DNA of 64,000 nt from Baekduia alba (GTDB taxonomy: Bacteria > Actinomycetota > Thermoleophilia > Solirubrobacterales > Solirubrobacteraceae). The stretch covers positions 4,898,001 through 4,962,000 of the forward strand of contig NZ_CP114013.1 of the NCBI RefSeq assembly GCF_028416635.1. Reading direction: 5' to 3'. Positions 7,661 through 14,928 of this stretch are shown one piece after another. A model generated the notes under the pieces. The model was not told the origin of the DNA, did not search any database, and was given only the letters and a program-made list of their open reading frames with translations. The stretch's first letter is position 1. The number at the start of each line of letters is the position of its first letter. A program made the translations under genes and the position numbers.

Positions 7661-8620
7661 CTACCACCAGGCGGACAGCAGCAGCGCGATCCCGACGACC
7701 GCGGCGAGCGCGACGACGACCGCGTTGACGACGAGCAGGCGGCTCGAGCGCGGCGCGCGGGCGGGCACCGACGGATCCGCGACGTGCGCCGCGAGCGCGC
7801 TCGAGATGTAGGTGTTGAGCGGGACGCCCTCGCGCTCGGCGGCCTCGCCCAGCTCGGTGTGCAGCGTGCGCGGCAGGCGCAGCAGGAGCCGGCCGCTGCG
7901 CGGGTCGGCCGACGCTCCGGGCCGCTGCGCGATCGGCGGGTCGGCGGACGCGACCGCCTCCGGCGCGACCGCTCCGCGCAGCCGCTCCAGCGCCGCCCTC
8001 AGCAGCCGCGACACGTGCGCCTGGGAGAGCCCGAGCTCGCGCGCGATCTCCGACTGGCTGCGGTCCTCGCGGTAGCGCAGCTCGAGCAGCCGGCGCTCGC
8101 GGTCGTCCAGCGCGCCCCAGCCGGCCTCGAGCAGGACGCGCGCCTCGGCCGCCTCGGTGTCCGCGCGCGTGGCCGGCAGCGCGGCGTCGTCGTCGTCGGG
8201 CAGCGCGACCGCCGGCTCGACGGCGGCGAGCGCGTCGGCCGCGCGCTCCTCGTCGACGTCGGCGGCCGCGGCCAGCTCGGCCGTCGTCGGCGGGCGCCGC
8301 AGCCGCGCGGTCAGCTCGCCGCGCAGGGCGCGCAGCCGGCCGCCGAGCTCGCGATCGCCGCGGGCGACGTGCGGGCCGCAGCCGCCGTCGCGCAGGTGGT
8401 GCTTGATCTCGCCCTCGATCGACGGCCGGGCCAGCGCCGCGAGGTCGCGGTCGCGCGTCGGGTCGAAGCGGTCGACCGCCTTGATGAGGCCGACCGTCCC
8501 GGCCTGGACGAGATCCTCGAGCGCCTCGCCGCGGCCGGCGTAGCGGCGCGCGATCGACCGCACGAGCGGCAGGTGCGCCTCGATCGCGTCGGTGCGGGCG
8601 TCGAGTCCCGGGGACCCCAT
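7661..8620 (-). CDS. Sigma-70 factor fused to ribbon-helix-helix domain and C-terminal membrane helix
   Basis: Residues 10-75 match sigma region 2 of the SigB/F/G type (YAGRGEALEDLVQAGTVGL and IEGEIKHHLRDGG), residues 85-140 region 3, and residues 165-215 region 4 (LDDRERRLLELRYREDRSQS and LGLSQAHVSRLLRAALERL). After a linker, residues 243-280 look like an Arc/HicB-type ribbon-helix-helix domain (LLLRLPRTLHTELGEAA, then GVPLNTYISSALAAHV). Residues 294-316 form one hydrophobic helix with almost nothing beyond it, so the protein appears tail-anchored in the membrane. Typical SigB-type factors end after region 4 near 260 residues. It is divergent from the exported-protein cluster at 8777. What it transcribes, and whether it is released from the membrane, is unknown. 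Confidence 0.85.
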   Translation of the reverse strand: MGSPGLDARTDAIEAHLPLVRSIARRYAGRGEALEDLVQAGTVGLIKAVDRFDPTRDRDLAALARPSIEGEIKHHLRDGGCGPHVARGDRELGGRLRALRGELTARLRRPPTTAELAAAADVDEERAADALAAVEPAVALPDDDDAALPATRADTEAAEARVLLEAGWGALDDRERRLLELRYREDRSQSEIARELGLSQAHVSRLLRAALERLRGAVAPEAVASADPPIAQRPGASADPRSGRLLLRLPRTLHTELGEAAEREGVPLNTYISSALAAHVADPSVPARAPRSSRLLVVNAVVVALAAVVGIALLLSAWW

Positions 8621-8776: not shown

Positions 8777-9826
8777 ATGGAGACGGACCTCGTCACGCGT
8801 GTGCACCGCAGCCTGCTGCTGGTCTTCTGCCTCCTCTTGCTCGCGGTTGTTCCCGCGGCACGGGCAGACGACACGGCGACGCCGGCCGTCGAGATCCCGG
8901 CCTCCGCCGTCAGCGCCGCCAACACCGGGGGCGCGGCCGCCGGCGCGGTCGCCTCAGGCGCGGGCAGCGCCGCGGCCGCGCAGCAGGCGCCGACGAACAT
9001 CAACGTCACGATCGTCAACAACAGCCCGGGCGCGGTCGTCAACACGACCCAGGTCAACGCCGCGACGGCGGCCGTCGCGGCCCCCGCGCCGCCGGCTCCC
9101 CCGCACGTGGATCCGCCCGCGCCGCCGGCGCCGCCGCACGTCGATCCGCCCACGCCGCCGACGCCCCCCTCGCCGCCCACGGTCCACGTCCCCGACGTGC
9201 CGGCGGCCGCTGCCGGCGCCGGCGTCGCCCAGCCCACCACGAGCTCCTCGAACGGCGCGGCCGCGTCCGCGCCCAGCCCCGTCGTCGCCCCCGCGGCGGC
9301 TGCCGCGCCGGCCACGGCGACGGCTCCTCAGCCGGCCGCCGCTCCCGGCGGCGGCGGGGCGCGCAGGGTCGGCGCCGACACCGGCGGCCTGGCCGCCGGC
9401 AGCAAGGCGCACGCGCCCCGCGGCGACGCCGTCCAGCGCAACTACGTCGGCGCGCGCGCCGCGGGCGCGACGGCCACGGCGGCGGCCGCCCCGTGGCCGA
9501 TCGCCGCGGCGACCCCGGCGCCGGCCGCCGTGGTCCCGGCCACCACCGGCCGCGACGCCGCGGCCCACGGCGACGGCCGCGCGGCCGCCGCGCGCCATCG
9601 CACCCACGCCGCCCGCGCGCCGTACCGCGCGCCGGCCGTCCCGATCGAGCCGCCCGTCGCCGCGTCGGCCGGCGGCCTCGGCGGTCCCGGCGGCGGCACC
9701 ATGCTTGCCCTCACGCTCGTCGCAGCGCTCGTGCTCACCGGTTCGGCGGGACCGTACGAGCTCGTCGCGCTGCTCCGACGACGTGCCCCCCTCAGCGCCG
9801 GAGGGCGCCTCGAACGTCCGGGGTAG
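8777..9826 (+). CDS. Exported Ala/Pro-rich protein with C-terminal membrane helix
   Basis: I chose the ATG at 8777 because it gives a clean signal peptide (charged start, SLLLVFCLLLLAVVPAARA). The mature part begins with a small Asn-rich block (NINVTIVNNSPGAVVN) and continues as about 220 residues of Ala/Pro low-complexity sequence, including repeated PPAPPHVDPP units, before a hydrophobic helix near the C-terminus and an RRR stop-transfer. It looks like a wall-spanning stalk anchored in the membrane. The NNSPG block resembles the LSPG core of the repeat protein encoded next. No enzymatic domain is visible. Upstream frames remain open to 8693, but they would add an unlikely N-terminus. Confidence 0.7.
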   Translation: METDLVTRVHRSLLLVFCLLLLAVVPAARADDTATPAVEIPASAVSAANTGGAAAGAVASGAGSAAAAQQAPTNINVTIVNNSPGAVVNTTQVNAATAAVAAPAPPAPPHVDPPAPPAPPHVDPPTPPTPPSPPTVHVPDVPAAAAGAGVAQPTTSSSNGAAASAPSPVVAPAAAAAPATATAPQPAAAPGGGGARRVGADTGGLAAGSKAHAPRGDAVQRNYVGARAAGATATAAAAPWPIAAATPAPAAVVPATTGRDAAAHGDGRAAAARHRTHAARAPYRAPAVPIEPPVAASAGGLGGPGGGTMLALTLVAALVLTGSAGPYELVALLRRRAPLSAGGRLERPG

Positions 9827-9886: not shown

Positions 9887-11011
9887 ATGCGCAAGACCAT
9901 GATGGTGTGGTCGGCCTGTGCCGCAGCGGTGCTGCCGGCCTGTGCCGCCGGCACCGCGATGGCCGACGGCGTGCCCGTCCAGGGCATCGGCCAGCAGGCC
10001 ACCAGCAACCAGGCCGCGAACTCCGAGGCGAGCTCGAACCAGAGCAACCCCTCCAACAACGCGATCCACGTCGCGATCCTGAGCCCGGGCGCGAGCAGCG
10101 GCCCGGTCTCCCAGCAGAACAACTCGGGGGCGACCTCGAGCGCCGGCAACACCAACGCCACCACGCAGAGCTCGGCGCAGAGCGCCGGGGGCGGCGGCGG
10201 GGGCGGCGGCGGTGCGGTGCAGGGCGTCGGCCAGGATGCGCAGAGCAACCAGGCCGCCAACTCGTCCGCCGAGTCGAACCAGAGCAACGCCAACAACAAC
10301 GCGGTGTCGCTGGCGATCCTGAGCCCGGGCGCGAGCAGCGGCCCGGTCTCCCAGCAGAACAACTCGGGGGCGACCTCGAGCGCCGGCAACACCAACGCCA
10401 CCACGCAGAACGCCGAGCAGTCCGCCGGCGGCAGCGCGATGGAGAAGAAGGCGCCTGAGCCGCGCACCGAGTGTGGCTCATCGTGCTCGCCGCCTCCGCC
10501 TCCGTGCGGCGGCTGCGGCCACCCGAGCACGCCGACGGTCCAAGGGATCGGCCAGCAGGCCATCAACAACCAGTCCGCCAGCTCGAGCGCCGAGTCCAAC
10601 CAGTACAACCCGTCCAACACGGCGGTGTCGCTGGCGATCCTGAGCCCGGGCGCGAGCTCCGGCCCGGTGTCCCAGCAGAACAACTCGTACGCCGACTCGA
10701 AGGCCGGCAACACCAACGCCACGACCCAGAACGCCGCGCAGAGCGCCGGCGGCTGGGGCGGCCCGGTGCAGGCCATCGGTCAGTTCGCGTACAACAACCA
10801 GGCGGCCAACTCGTCCGCGAAGTCGAACCAGTGGTGCCCGTCGAACCTGGCGCTGTCGCTGCCGATCCTGAGCCCGGGCGCGAGCTCCGGCCCGGTGTCG
10901 CAGGCCAACAACTCGGGCGCGAGCTCGATGGCCGGCAACGCCAACTACACCACGCAGAACGCTGACCAGGCGTTCGGCGGGTGGCCCTGGCCGCCCGTGG
11001 TGGTGATCTAG
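9887..11011 (+). CDS. Secreted Q/N-rich protein of four 70-residue repeats, amyloid-like
   Basis: After a signal peptide of about 27 residues the protein consists of four repeats of exactly 70 residues (31-100, 111-180, 218-287, 294-363), each running from VQ-G-GQ-A--NQ-A-S, through SNQ-N--N, A--LSPGASSGPVSQ, to AGN-N-TTQ. Spacers are a poly-Gly run (101-109), a Cys/Pro-rich insert with CGGCG (195-211) and a short WGG. Regularly spaced Gln and Asn between small residues recall curlin-type functional amyloids, but it is not a recognisable CsgA homologue. Repeats 1 and 2 share a 97-bp identical DNA block. Neighbours are also exported. A surface fibre or coat role is an inference. Confidence 0.85.
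   Translation: MRKTMMVWSACAAAVLPACAAGTAMADGVPVQGIGQQATSNQAANSEASSNQSNPSNNAIHVAILSPGASSGPVSQQNNSGATSSAGNTNATTQSSAQSAGGGGGGGGGAVQGVGQDAQSNQAANSSAESNQSNANNNAVSLAILSPGASSGPVSQQNNSGATSSAGNTNATTQNAEQSAGGSAMEKKAPEPRTECGSSCSPPPPPCGGCGHPSTPTVQGIGQQAINNQSASSSAESNQYNPSNTAVSLAILSPGASSGPVSQQNNSYADSKAGNTNATTQNAAQSAGGWGGPVQAIGQFAYNNQAANSSAKSNQWCPSNLALSLPILSPGASSGPVSQANNSGASSMAGNANYTTQNADQAFGGWPWPPVVVI
9977..10975 (+). repeat. Four tandem coding repeats of 210 bp with spacers
   Basis: Repeat units lie at 9977-10186, 10217-10426, 10538-10747 and 10766-10975, each 210 bp (70 codons). Units 1 and 2 contain an exact 97-bp match (10073-10169 and 10313-10409), pointing to recent duplication or gene conversion. 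Units 3 and 4 are more diverged but hold the same frame and length. Confidence 0.9.
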
Positions 11012-11126: not shown

Positions 11127-11663
11127 GTGAGGATTGGCCGTCGATGTGCAGCGTTCATCACCGGCCTGGCGATCGGATCGCCGGGGGCGGTGGCCGTCGC
11201 GCAGACCCCGGCGCCGGATCCCAGCCCGACCAGCGCGCGGCAGCCGGACGCGGCGCCGGTGCGGGCGCAGCCGGCACCGCGCGTGGCCGCCCAGCCCAAG
11301 GCCGGCGTCACGGCGGCCGGGCCGGCGGTGACGACGACGCAGGCGGCCCCGCGGGCGGCGACGCCCACGGCGACCCCGCGGCGCACGCCGGCGACGCACC
11401 GGGCGCAACGCGCGCGCCGCGCGCAGGCGGCACGTCACGCGGCCGCGAGCCGCGCCCGCGCCCGCCACGACGCGACGGCCGCGCTGACGGCCGCCGGCCG
11501 GACGATCGCCCCGGTGGCCTTCGTCGCCCCCGCGCCGGCGCGGATCGAGGACGACAACAACGAAGACCGCTCCCTCCAGGCGATCGCCGGCGCCGCCCTC
11601 CTGGCCCTCGCGGCCGCCGGCGCGCTGACCCTGACCCGCGTGAGGCGGAGCGCGACCGCATGA
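11127..11663 (+). CDS. Exported Ala/Pro/Thr-rich protein with C-terminal anchor
   Basis: The 178-residue product starts at a GTG preceded by GAAGGA. It has a signal peptide (to about AVAVAQ, residue 26), a long basic Ala/Pro/Thr/Arg-rich region without recognisable fold, and a C-terminal hydrophobic helix (LQAIAGAALLALAAAGALTL) followed by RVRR. The architecture is similar to the 8777 gene and suggests a membrane-anchored, wall-penetrating protein. Its stop overlaps the start of the next gene (ATGA), so the two are translationally coupled. I do not recognise a family. Confidence 0.65.
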   Translation: MRIGRRCAAFITGLAIGSPGAVAVAQTPAPDPSPTSARQPDAAPVRAQPAPRVAAQPKAGVTAAGPAVTTTQAAPRAATPTATPRRTPATHRAQRARRAQAARHAAASRARARHDATAALTAAGRTIAPVAFVAPAPARIEDDNNEDRSLQAIAGAALLALAAAGALTLTRVRRSATA

Positions 11664-12787: not shown

Positions 12788-13066
12788 ATGCCGACCGGCA
12801 TCATGTACATCGAGAACAAGGCCGGCGGCCTCACCGGCCCCGCCCGCATCGGCCGCGTCGCGTTCTCGAAGACCAGCCGCACGCTGTACTACGACGGCAA
12901 GTCCTTCCAGAGCCTCAAGGGCGCCGGCTTCAAGTCCAACTACTACGACACCGAGACCGGCGAGGAGTACTGGAATCAGTCCGCGGCCGACCGTCCCGCG
13001 CACGCGAGACGGTCGCCAACCGCTGATCCCTACCCCGCGCCGCCGATGCGCGACGGCGGCCAGTAG
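12788..13066 (+). CDS. Small conserved protein (family often misnamed 1-deoxyxylulose-5-phosphate synthase)
   Basis: Residues 4-62 (IMYIENKAGGLTGPARIGRV, FSKTSRTLYYDGKSFQSLKG, then FKSNYYDTETGEEYW) match a small protein family found sporadically in many bacteria and often mislabelled as DXP synthase. The real function is unknown and no thiamine-diphosphate site is present. As I remember the family, the typical tail after EEYW is about 20 residues with a Lys/Gly-rich motif; here it is replaced by a Pro/Arg-rich segment that runs antisense into the end of the signal peptidase gene (37 bp overlap), so the 3' end may have been altered. Confidence 0.75.
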   Translation: MPTGIMYIENKAGGLTGPARIGRVAFSKTSRTLYYDGKSFQSLKGAGFKSNYYDTETGEEYWNQSAADRPAHARRSPTADPYPAPPMRDGGQ

Positions 13067-13668
13067 GTCGCGAAGGCCTTGCCGACCACCCAGTCCAGCG
13101 GCACCGGGCCCCAGAGGCGGCTGTCGTCGGAGTTGCCGCGGTTGTCGCCCATCATGTAGACGGCGCCCTTCGGGATGGTGATCGTCTTGGGGAAGTCGCA
13201 GATCTCGCCCGTGCAGGGCGCCGTGAACGGCTCGCTCACCTGCTTGCCGTTGCGGATGACGTGGCCGTTGCGCACCGAGATCGTGTCGCCCCCGAGGGCG
13301 ACGACGCGCTTGATGAACGACTGCGAGGACTGCTCCGGCGTCGCCTTCGAGCACGGCGTCGGCGTCCCCTCACCCTCCCCGTTGGTGCCGCACTGCGACT
13401 GGTCGGTGAAGTCGGCGCCGTGCGGCGGGTGGAAGACGACGATGTCGCCGATCTTCGGCTCGCGGCCGAGCACGCGCTTGGAGAAGCGGTCGACGAGCAC
13501 GCGGTCGTGGATGTGCAGCGTCGGCTCCATCGAGCCGCTCGGGATCTTATAGGGCTTGATCGCGAACGCCTGGAGCAGGATGGCCACGGCGACCGCCACG
13601 ACCAAGAGGAAGATGGTCTCGACGAGCGTGTTGTGACGGGCACGTTGGAGCATGGGTATCCGCATCAT
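13030..13668 (-). CDS. lepB: Signal peptidase I
   Basis: The 212-residue protein has an N-terminal membrane helix (TIFLLVVAVAVAILLQAF), the S26 box B motif IPSGSMEPTLH with the catalytic Ser, the box D segment FIKRVVALGGD with the catalytic Lys, and the box E MGDNRGNSDDSR. It cleaves signal peptides from exported proteins at the outer face of the membrane. An insert with two Cys residues (QSQCGTNGEG to TPCSKA) is present between boxes. The ATG at 13668 overlaps the stop of the PucR-type regulator (ATGA); internal ATGs at 13665 and 13653 would also work. Coupling to a proline regulator has no obvious functional meaning. Confidence 0.93.
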   Translation of the reverse strand: MMRIPMLQRARHNTLVETIFLLVVAVAVAILLQAFAIKPYKIPSGSMEPTLHIHDRVLVDRFSKRVLGREPKIGDIVVFHPPHGADFTDQSQCGTNGEGEGTPTPCSKATPEQSSQSFIKRVVALGGDTISVRNGHVIRNGKQVSEPFTAPCTGEICDFPKTITIPKGAVYMMGDNRGNSDDSRLWGPVPLDWVVGKAFATYWPPSRIGGAG

Positions 13669-14822
13669 CCTAAGACCGGCGACCCGGCGAGCCGCCACAT
13701 CCGCACTGCCAGGTGGGCATGCAGGCGGGCGTCGCCCTCGCGGAGGTCCAGGCCGGTCAGCTCCTCGACCCGCGCGAGGCGCCGGTACAGCGTCGCGCGA
13801 TGCACGTGCAGCTCGCGCGCGGCGGCGGCCACGTCGCCCGCGGCGTCGAGCGTCGCCTCCAGCGCCCGGGCCAGGTCCGGCCCACCGCGCGCGGCCAGCA
13901 GCGCGGGCAGCGGCGCCGGCGCGGCCGGCCGGCCGGCGGCGTCCCACAGGCGCGCGACGCGCGGCCAGGCGCCGAGGCCGTCGACCGCGCCGGCGCGCCC
14001 CAGCTCCGGCACGTGCTGCACGGCGATCAGGGCCGCGGCCGCCACCGCGCCGCCCTCGCGCGCGGCCGCGAGATCCGGCAGGACCGACGACGCCGCGGCG
14101 TGCCGGGCGCCCGCGTCGACCAGCGCCCGCGCCAGCGCGTCCGGCCCGTGCCCGGCGCTGAGGTGCGCGACCGCCGTGCCGACCTCGCCGCGCACGCGCC
14201 AGACGAGGTCGTCCTGATGCCAGCGGCGCCGCGCGCGCTCCAGCACCTCGGCGCCGCCGTCGTCGGCCTCGATCAGCGCGACCGCGAAGTCCGCGCCGGC
14301 CCCGCGGGTCCAGCCCTGGCGCGCCGCCAGCTCGCCCGCCGCCCGCGTCCGCACGCCCGGATCCGGATCGTCGAGCAGCTCGCCGAGCAGCGCGGCGATC
14401 CGCGCGTGCGCCTCGTCGCCGCCCGCGCGCGCCGCCCACAGCGCGTCGGCCGCCTGCCGCGCGGTGTCCAGCAGCAGCCCGCGCTCGCGCGCGTCGAGCG
14501 GCGCCGGCCCCGGGATCACCCACACCACACCGAGCATCGCGCCGTCGTGGCGCACCGACGCGGCCGTCCGCGGGCCCATCTCGATCGCGTCGTTGGCCGG
14601 TGTGTCGACCACGTCGCCCGCGTGCTCGAGGCCGAGCGTGTCGAGCCACGCCGCCACGGCCGGCGGCGCGGCCCGCGCGAGGATCGACGCCTGGCGGACG
14701 CGGTCCTCCAGCTCGGTGTGCGCGCTGAACGCGAGCAGCCGCCAGCGGCGGTCCTCCAGCGCGACCGGCCGGCCCAGCGCGTCGGCGAGGTCGTCGACGA
14801 GATCCTGCACGGAGACGGGCAT
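13665..14822 (-). CDS. PucR-family transcriptional regulator, probable proline-catabolism regulator
   Basis: The 385-residue protein begins with an N-terminal sensory segment (VSVQDLVDDLADALGRPVAL) and ends with the PucR C-terminal HTH_30 domain (LEATLDAAGDVAAAARELHV, HRATLYRRLARVEELTGLDL). It is transcribed divergently from the proline dehydrogenase and P5C dehydrogenase genes, and PucR-type activators control proline utilisation in other actinobacteria, so it probably senses proline or a product of it and activates those genes. A perfect 18-bp palindrome lies between the two start codons. The ATG at 14822 fits the start of the family. Confidence 0.85.
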   Translation of the reverse strand: MPVSVQDLVDDLADALGRPVALEDRRWRLLAFSAHTELEDRVRQASILARAAPPAVAAWLDTLGLEHAGDVVDTPANDAIEMGPRTAASVRHDGAMLGVVWVIPGPAPLDARERGLLLDTARQAADALWAARAGGDEAHARIAALLGELLDDPDPGVRTRAAGELAARQGWTRGAGADFAVALIEADDGGAEVLERARRRWHQDDLVWRVRGEVGTAVAHLSAGHGPDALARALVDAGARHAAASSVLPDLAAAREGGAVAAAALIAVQHVPELGRAGAVDGLGAWPRVARLWDAAGRPAAPAPLPALLAARGGPDLARALEATLDAAGDVAAAARELHVHRATLYRRLARVEELTGLDLREGDARLHAHLAVRMWRLAGSPVLG

Positions 14823-14844
14823 CGTGAGCTCCCGACGATACGGG

Positions 14845-14862
14845 GTGCGACAGATGTCGCAC
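14845..14862. promoter_or_regulatory. Perfect palindrome, likely operator of the PucR-type regulator
   Basis: Eight-base arms GTGCGACA and TGTCGCAC flank a GA centre, giving a perfect inverted repeat in the 106-bp divergent region between the regulator and the proline dehydrogenase gene. Its position fits an operator read by the regulator, controlling both directions. Confidence 0.6.
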
Positions 14863-14928
14863 GTCCGCGGGGCGAATCGAGACGGGCGCGCGCTGCTAGC
14901 CGCGCCGCCCGCGGGGAACATCGAGATC

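What the first reader, a model, noticed from the sequence alone, without database searches (positions are those of the whole stretch)
9887..11011. Secreted protein built of four exact 70-residue Q/N-rich repeats, amyloid-like
The repeats have constant length with regularly spaced Gln, Asn and Gly and a central LSPGASSGPVSQ block, and a 97-bp identical DNA segment links repeats 1 and 2. The pattern recalls curlin-type functional amyloids but I do not recognise a known family. A neighbouring exported protein (8777-9826) carries a related NNSPG block, so the two may form part of one surface structure.
Basis: partly seen in the sequence, partly recalled or inferred. Interest (0 to 1): 0.65.

Follow-up and report, generated by a model that had tools for sequence, protein, structure and literature searches.

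The report
Anchored amyloid-like surface fibre gene pair
This bacterium carries a gene for an exported protein made of four similar glutamine- and asparagine-rich blocks that probably stack into an amyloid-like surface fibre, paired with a membrane-anchored partner and a sigma factor, in an arrangement that recurs in related bacteria.

Summary
The repeats are real but not exact: four 72-residue units, 49-59 of 72 residues identical pairwise, separated by 8-, 35- and 4-residue spacers; the 97-bp identical segment is confirmed. The protein is single-copy, with a relative in one of 60 related genomes. Its unit belongs to an uncharacterised repeat family in 24 of 399 genomes of the class, taken as Thermoleophilia. 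No believable family match for the repeat proteins.

The neighbourhood is informative. In 22 of 28 loci found by the repeats, the gene just upstream encodes an exported membrane protein with a C-terminal '[E/D]xPG'-like tail; in the window this is 8777-9826. In 16 of 28 a SigB/F/G-type sigma gene is divergent; in the window it is fused to a HicB/RHH domain plus a hydrophobic C-terminal helix.

Conserved positions alternate strictly along two arms. A low-confidence AlphaFold2 model of a relative gives the FapC amyloid as the only significant Foldseek match; the window's own repeats rank FapC first, not significantly. Best reading: a Fap/curli-like stacked-repeat fibre, not shown to be homologous to either.

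The parts
9887..11011 (+). Secreted Q/N-rich protein, 374 aa, four 72-aa repeats: proposed major fibre subunit
   Evidence: ORF and signal peptide; single copy in own genome; relative with five repeats in G006; GC3 0.97 and frame kept
9977..10192 (+). Repeat 1
10217..10432 (+). Repeat 2
10538..10753 (+). Repeat 3
10766..10981 (+). Repeat 4, the most divergent; most like the last repeat of the G006 relative (52 of 72 identical)
10433..10537 (+). 35-aa Cys/Pro-rich spacer between repeats 2 and 3
   Evidence: sequence
10073..10169 (+). 97-bp segment identical to 10313-10409 (recent duplication or gene conversion)
8777..9826 (+). Exported, Pro/Ala-rich membrane protein with C-terminal transmembrane segment and ERPG tail: proposed anchor or nucleator
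8951..9079 (+). Degenerate half-repeat (PTNINVTIVNNSPG...) in the anchor protein
   Evidence: weak profile match, best domain 8.6 bits, not significant for the whole sequence
9674..9823 (+). Gly-rich stretch, transmembrane segment, Arg cluster and C-terminal ERPG
   Evidence: alignment A3, profile search
7661..8620 (-). SigB/F/G-type sigma factor fused to a HicB/ribbon-helix-helix domain and a C-terminal hydrophobic (transmembrane) segment: proposed regulator, divergent from the anchor gene
   Evidence: Pfam and NCBIfam; homologues beside repeat genes
7796..7906 (-). HicB/RHH domain of the sigma protein (aa 239-275)
   Evidence: PF05534 E=4.6e-8
11127..11663 (+). Small exported Ala/Pro-rich protein with C-terminal hydrophobic segment; a similar gene follows in G006; role uncertain
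   Evidence: no tblastn hit in the loci held

Best explanation
The locus encodes a small surface-fibre system. The exported protein 9887-11011 is the major subunit. Each 72-aa unit is two long beta arms joined by the SPGASSGP turn, with conserved Q, N, A and T on one face. The units stack on each other and on units of other molecules in a cross-beta (functional-amyloid) fibre, in the way FapC stacks its imperfect repeats. The upstream protein 8777-9826 is exported and held in the cell membrane by its C-terminal helix, with the Arg cluster and ERPG tail in the cytoplasm. It acts as anchor or nucleator, as CsgB or FapB do for their major subunits. The divergent sigma factor, tethered to the membrane through a HicB/RHH-TM extension, controls the genes. 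Shown here: the repeats, their family, the conserved gene pair, the frequent sigma neighbour and the beta-like alternation. Inferred: fibre formation, nucleation, membrane topology and regulation.
For: Repeat family with strict alternation of conserved columns: arm 1 odd 1.84 vs even 0.69 bits, arm 2 even 1.99 vs odd 0.82, both permutation p about 1e-4, 58 repeats. Not a composition effect: 22 of 22 repeat ORFs match the profile and 0 of 440 shuffles do (most of the 22 also fed the profile). Signal-peptide-like N termini in 25 of 25 repeat ORFs looked at. AlphaFold2 predicts all-beta long strands for the window's repeats 3-4 (pLDDT 50) and for a relative's three repeats (pLDDT 57, pTM 0.48). 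Foldseek top hit for the relative is FapC 9u4u, E=1.1e-5, probability 1.00, the only one of 88 matches at E<=0.001. FapC is also ranked first, not significantly, for the window's repeats. xPG-tailed membrane protein directly upstream in 22 of 28 repeat loci; it carries profile-detected repeats itself in several. Sigma homologue divergent in 16 of 28, with HicB/RHH-TM fused in 3 or as a separate small gene in 10. The FapC paper describes one repeat per cross-beta layer, conserved Asn/Gln networks, and nucleator gene fapB before fapC (PMC12392863, passages and section 2.1).
Against: The structure models are low confidence. For the window's own repeats the FapC match is not significant (E=0.023, probability 0.06) and the second aligner finds nothing at Z>=2. 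For the relative Z is only 5.1 (CsgA) and 4.6 (FapC), and TM-scores are 0.22/0.30. No sequence similarity to FapC or CsgA is significant. No promoter motif was detected between sigma and anchor genes (70 vs shuffled mean 69.2). The sigma/RHH-TM pair also occurs away from repeats and the tail occurs on proteins without a Q/N-rich neighbour. Own-genome and G006 paralogues of the repeat protein have neither tail protein next door nor sigma nearby. Most genomes of the class lack the family (375 of 399 at E<=1e-5).
Confidence: 0.55

Rival explanations
1. A non-amyloid elongated adhesin or stalk: the repeats fold into a rigid beta-solenoid or an intertwined oligomeric beta-fibre that projects from the cell without self-propagating polymerisation.
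For: Long predicted strands; other Foldseek rows are beta-solenoid proteins such as SufB/SufD and ice-binding proteins; repeat number varies from 4 to 14 among intact multi-repeat proteins, as in stalk proteins.
Against: No such row reaches E<=0.001; no separate head domain in P0001; Q/N/A/S/G composition.
Confidence: 0.2
2. A disordered, low-complexity exported matrix or desiccation-protection protein whose repeats bind water, ice or polysaccharide.
For: Low charge (0.04 K+R+D+E after the signal peptide), high S/G/N/Q, low pLDDT.
Against: Columns are conserved with strict period-2 alternation and a conserved SPG turn across four families of the class, which disorder would not need.
Confidence: 0.15
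3. The gene pair is real, but the upstream protein is a signalling sensor rather than an anchor: its cytoplasmic xPG tail reports envelope or fibre state to the tethered sigma factor (partly compatible with the best explanation).
For: Arg cluster after the TM places the tail inside by the positive-inside rule (recalled); sigma divergent in 16 of 28 loci.
Against: Tail proteins occur with no sigma homologue in the DNA held (e.g. L045-L048, L050, L051).
Confidence: 0.2
4. Chance or annotation artefact: an open frame in GC-rich DNA with simple-sequence expansion.
For: Many overlapping frames are open here.
Against: GC3 0.97, frame kept in G006, profile relatives in 24 of 399 class genomes.
Confidence: 0.02

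Closest known systems
Fap functional amyloid (FapC/FapB, Pseudomonas)
   Same: Imperfect Q/N-rich repeats with linkers, conserved Asn/Gln, a Gly turn followed by a Q/N motif, nucleator gene before major-subunit gene; top Foldseek match for a relative
   Different: Units of about 72 aa, not 38-39; 4-14 units, not mostly 3; no significant sequence match; partner has a TM anchor; presence of fapA/D/E/F not tested
Curli (CsgA/CsgB)
   Same: Secreted Q/N repeats, surface-linked nucleator beside the major subunit (recalled); CsgA appears among fold matches
   Different: Curlin_rpt PF07012 not found in 16 of 16 genomes tested; unit about three times longer (recalled); the class belongs to Actinomycetota, generally taken as single-membraned (recalled)
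Streptomyces chaplins and rodlins with BldN/RsbN
   Same: Actinobacterial surface proteins with an anchored (long) and a free (short) form, and a sigma factor with a cognate anti-sigma factor controlling them (PMC4255298 passages)
   Different: No chaplin match; anchor tail is xPG after the TM, not a sortase motif; sigma is SigB/F/G-type with HicB/RHH-TM, not ECF

Membership tests
Curli (CsgA) | Curlin repeat PF07012 | tested here: not met
   No hit for P0001 at E<=1; 0 of 16 repeat-bearing genomes, E. coli control positive
Curli (CsgA) | Amyloid fibre formation | not testable with these tools
   Needs a bench assay
Fap (FapC) | Sequence similarity to the FapB/FapC repeat | tested here: inconclusive
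   Profiles A2, A4, A7 and P0001 give no FapC chain at E<=10 in PDB sequences; presence of the chain in that file was not verified and no Fap profile was on hand
Fap (FapC) | Greek-key stack, one imperfect repeat per layer | tested here: inconclusive
   Relative's model: Foldseek E=1.1e-5 but TM 0.22/0.30 and Z 4.6; window model not significant
Fap (FapC) | fapA, fapD, fapE, fapF in the same cluster | not tested
   No Fap profiles were run
Chaplins | Chaplin domain PF03777 | tested here: inconclusive
   No hit for P0001 at E<=1; 0 of 16 genomes, but no control genome rang
Sortase-anchored surface proteins | LPXTG-like motif before the C-terminal TM | tested here: not met
   Read from the sequence of 8777-9826; in addition no sortase hit in 3 of 16 genomes that have the repeats (G066, G099, G104)
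SigB/F/G sigma factors | Sigma70 regions 2, 3 and 4 | tested here: met
   PF04542, PF04539 and PF04545 above cut-off; TIGR02980 best NCBIfam match but below its cut-off, 180 vs 234 bits

The most novel reading that the evidence does not exclude
A separate lineage of functional amyloid in Thermoleophilia: secreted stacked-repeat fibres nucleated on a membrane protein with a cytoplasmic C-terminal [E/D]xPG signal, and switched by a membrane-tethered sigma factor (sigma plus HicB/RHH plus TM), so that fibre assembly and its transcription are coupled through the membrane.
Probability: 0.3. Interest if true: 0.75.

Novelty: new variant of a known kind. Interest (0 to 1): 0.6.

Why it matters
If true, it adds an amyloid-like surface system in a little-studied class of Actinomycetota, with a repeat unit matching no family in the libraries searched, a C-terminal tail motif without a known enzyme or receptor, and a sigma factor physically joined to a membrane-anchored RHH domain. 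It would let one test whether Fap-like stacking of imperfect repeats arose more than once, and how single-membrane bacteria anchor and time such fibres.

Tried and rejected
Full-length protein search of genome contigs found no relative; a family alignment found 9 loci. Pfam, NCBIfam and PHROGs gave nothing usable for the repeat or anchor proteins. Below-cut-off hits were taken as chance, as was one above-cut-off Pfam hit of a relative (EB1_binding, 27.3 vs 25 bits, no stretch passing on its own, in a low-complexity protein). Simple promoter scoring for a SigB/F-type motif was null.

The idea that the sigma/RHH-TM pair is exclusive to this module was rejected: of 8 further loci with RHH matches fetched (G169, G266, G235, G223, G236:C88, G052, G298:C218, G221), 0 have the repeats in the DNA held; several are contig-cut. 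G236:C428, with a partial RHH hit at its contig end, does have them. The idea that the xPG tail is exclusive to the module was rejected too: of the 17 loci fetched, 9 with an RPG-ending membrane tail (L087, L088, L089, L090, L092, L093, L094, L098, L099) have no repeat-profile gene next door; L099 has a neighbour with 13% Q+N, and L098 an 85-aa Q/N-rich frame taken as chance. L095 and L096 have a repeat gene, L097 and L100 a Q/N-rich neighbour without a profile match, L091 carries repeats itself, and L101-L103 are not listed as tail proteins by the script. Chaplin absence is not shown, because no control rang. A genus name that I first suspected for the window's organism was searched for in papers without bearing on the finding; the organism is left unnamed.

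Literature searches for a description. Read: PMC12392863 (passages, section 2.1) and PMC4255298 (passages); the others were seen as listings only. None describes this family as far as the listings show; no search was made for the repeat sequence itself in papers.

Counting notes: one search tabulated 34 loci; 31 hold profile repeats. Three of these (L091, L095, L096) were found through the tail search and are left out of the 28. Of the 28, 19 have an [R/D]PG-ending membrane protein directly upstream by script and 3 more (L037 DPPG, L041 DKPG, L051 EHPG) by eye, giving 22; of the other six, L042 and L128 are contig-cut, and L120, L121, L122 and L127 lack it. The repeat and tail profiles were partly built from these same loci. 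L129-L133 and L135-L137 duplicate loci already held and were not counted.

Full report
Observation. ORF 9887-11011 (+) encodes 374 aa with a signal-peptide-like start. Four 72-aa units begin at residues 31, 111, 218 and 294; pairwise they share 49-59 of 72 residues and 43 positions are invariant. The spacers are 8, 35 (Cys/Pro-rich) and 4 residues. The 97-bp identity is exact (10073-10169 = 10313-10409), so units 1 and 2 were recently duplicated or converted. The best self-match of 59/72 compares with a shuffle maximum of 21 in 100. GC3 is 0.97 and codon differences with G006 concentrate at third positions in the N-terminal 103 codons (10/15/31), less so in the last repeat (20/12/18).

Where it occurs. 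The protein is single in its own genome, and besides itself only G006, of the same genus, matches among 61 genomes searched; there it has five units and the same flanking genes. A profile of nine units (A2) matched 17 of 299 class genomes at E<=1e-3. A broader profile of 58 units (A4) matched 24 of 399 at E<=1e-5, in four families, and in a phylum-wide draw of 396 only one genome outside the class (G582, one unit). Contigs of the same lengths carry names such as Gaiella and Thermoleophilaceae; Gaiella lies in Thermoleophilia, so the window's class is taken to be Thermoleophilia. Real repeat ORFs match the profile in 22 of 22 cases and shuffles in 0 of 440, so composition alone does not explain it.

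The unit. Consensus: Q...Q.A...Q.A.A.A.A.Q..P.N.N..VRV.SPG..G.V.Q.N...A.A.A.N.N.T.Q.A.Q.Q.G. In arm 1 (columns 1-22) conservation sits on odd columns (1.84 vs 0.69 bits), in arm 2 (42-69) on even columns (1.99 vs 0.82), each with permutation p about 1e-4, rows weighted by locus. That is what two long beta strands around an SPG turn would give.

Structure predictions. The window's repeats 3-4 with an alignment of 36 pairs give mean pLDDT 50.5, pTM 0.28, all beta. Against the PDB, the relative's model hits FapC 9u4u at E=1.1e-5, probability 1.00, with every other row at E>=0.06, but TM-scores are low (0.22/0.30) and the second aligner gives Z 5.1 for CsgA and 4.6 for FapC, within the range its notes call common. 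The window's own model ranks two FapC entries first and second without significance (E=0.023 and 0.85) and has no Z>=2 match. Sequence searches of PDB chains show no significant relative. The FapC paper (PMC12392863, passages and section 2.1) describes imperfect repeats each forming one cross-beta layer held by conserved Asn/Gln, and a cluster order with fapB before fapC. The analogy is good; homology is not shown.

The partner. Directly upstream, 8777-9826 encodes an exported Pro/Ala-rich protein ending in a Gly-rich linker, a hydrophobic helix, an Arg cluster and ERPG. Relatives end the same way. Of 28 repeat loci found by repeat profiles, 22 have such a protein immediately upstream on the same strand, 19 by script and 3 by eye. 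In several (for example L039, L043, L044, L134) the tail protein carries three to seven detected units itself, which fits an anchor or nucleator; in the window only a weak half-unit remains. In the own genome five DNA matches to the simplest ERPG-stop pattern were found; of the three whose frame my script printed, only this one is a membrane protein, and the other two were not read. The tail also occurs on membrane proteins with no Q/N-rich neighbour, so it is a wider signal.

The regulator. Divergent to the anchor gene, 7661-8620 (-) encodes a sigma factor with regions 2, 3 and 4, then a HicB-type domain (PF05534, E=4.6e-8) and a C-terminal hydrophobic helix (read from the sequence). Homologues lie divergent to the module in 16 of 28 repeat loci, in some 1.6-3 kb away. 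The HicB/RHH-TM part is fused in three (window, L035, L134) and a separate small gene in ten (L036-L044, L124). The pair also occurs without repeats. A promoter test was null. Streptomyces offers a parallel: the sigma factor BldN with anti-sigma RsbN controls chaplins and rodlins, and long chaplins are wall-anchored (PMC4255298 passages).

Mechanism. Most likely an exported, anchored, stacked-repeat fibre system (0.55). Membership: not curli; Fap and chaplin membership unproven; sortase motif absent, and no sortase hit in 3 of 16 genomes that have the repeats.

Verdict. A real and conserved module whose repeat and anchor proteins match no described family in the libraries searched; it works like Fap/curli in the favoured reading, unproven at the bench.

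Noticed in passing
L121 9427-12583 (own genome, about 25 kb beyond the window end): A diverged Cys-containing paralogue of the repeat family lies in two overlapping frames here, while the G006 relative (L122 5006-8182) is one open frame of 1059 aa with 14 units; neither has the tail protein next door or a sigma gene nearby.
   Followed up: partly
L151, L152, L153: The sigma plus HicB/RHH-TM gene pair occurs without the repeat module, so it looks like a more general membrane-tethered sigma system.
   Followed up: partly
L087, L088, L089, L092, L093, L094, L098: Membrane proteins with the same C-terminal ERPG tail but no Q/N-rich repeat neighbour; in L094 the next gene has peptidoglycan-binding and resolvase-like domains.
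   Followed up: partly
window 11127-11663: Small exported Ala/Pro-rich protein with a C-terminal hydrophobic segment; similar gene in the same place in G006 by eye, no tblastn hit in the loci held.
   Followed up: partly
window 13033-14895 (-) ORF: Signal peptidase I-like motif in an ORF near the module, also near it in G006 but in no other locus checked.
   Followed up: no
L120 5525-6076: A single repeat unit in a 184-aa frame with a signal-peptide-like start from a genome outside the class (G582).
   Followed up: no
L036, L038, L041, L047, L051: Spacers between repeats in many relatives carry short Cys-rich pieces (CGCG, CKCK, CCGG), which could cross-link or bind metal.
   Followed up: no
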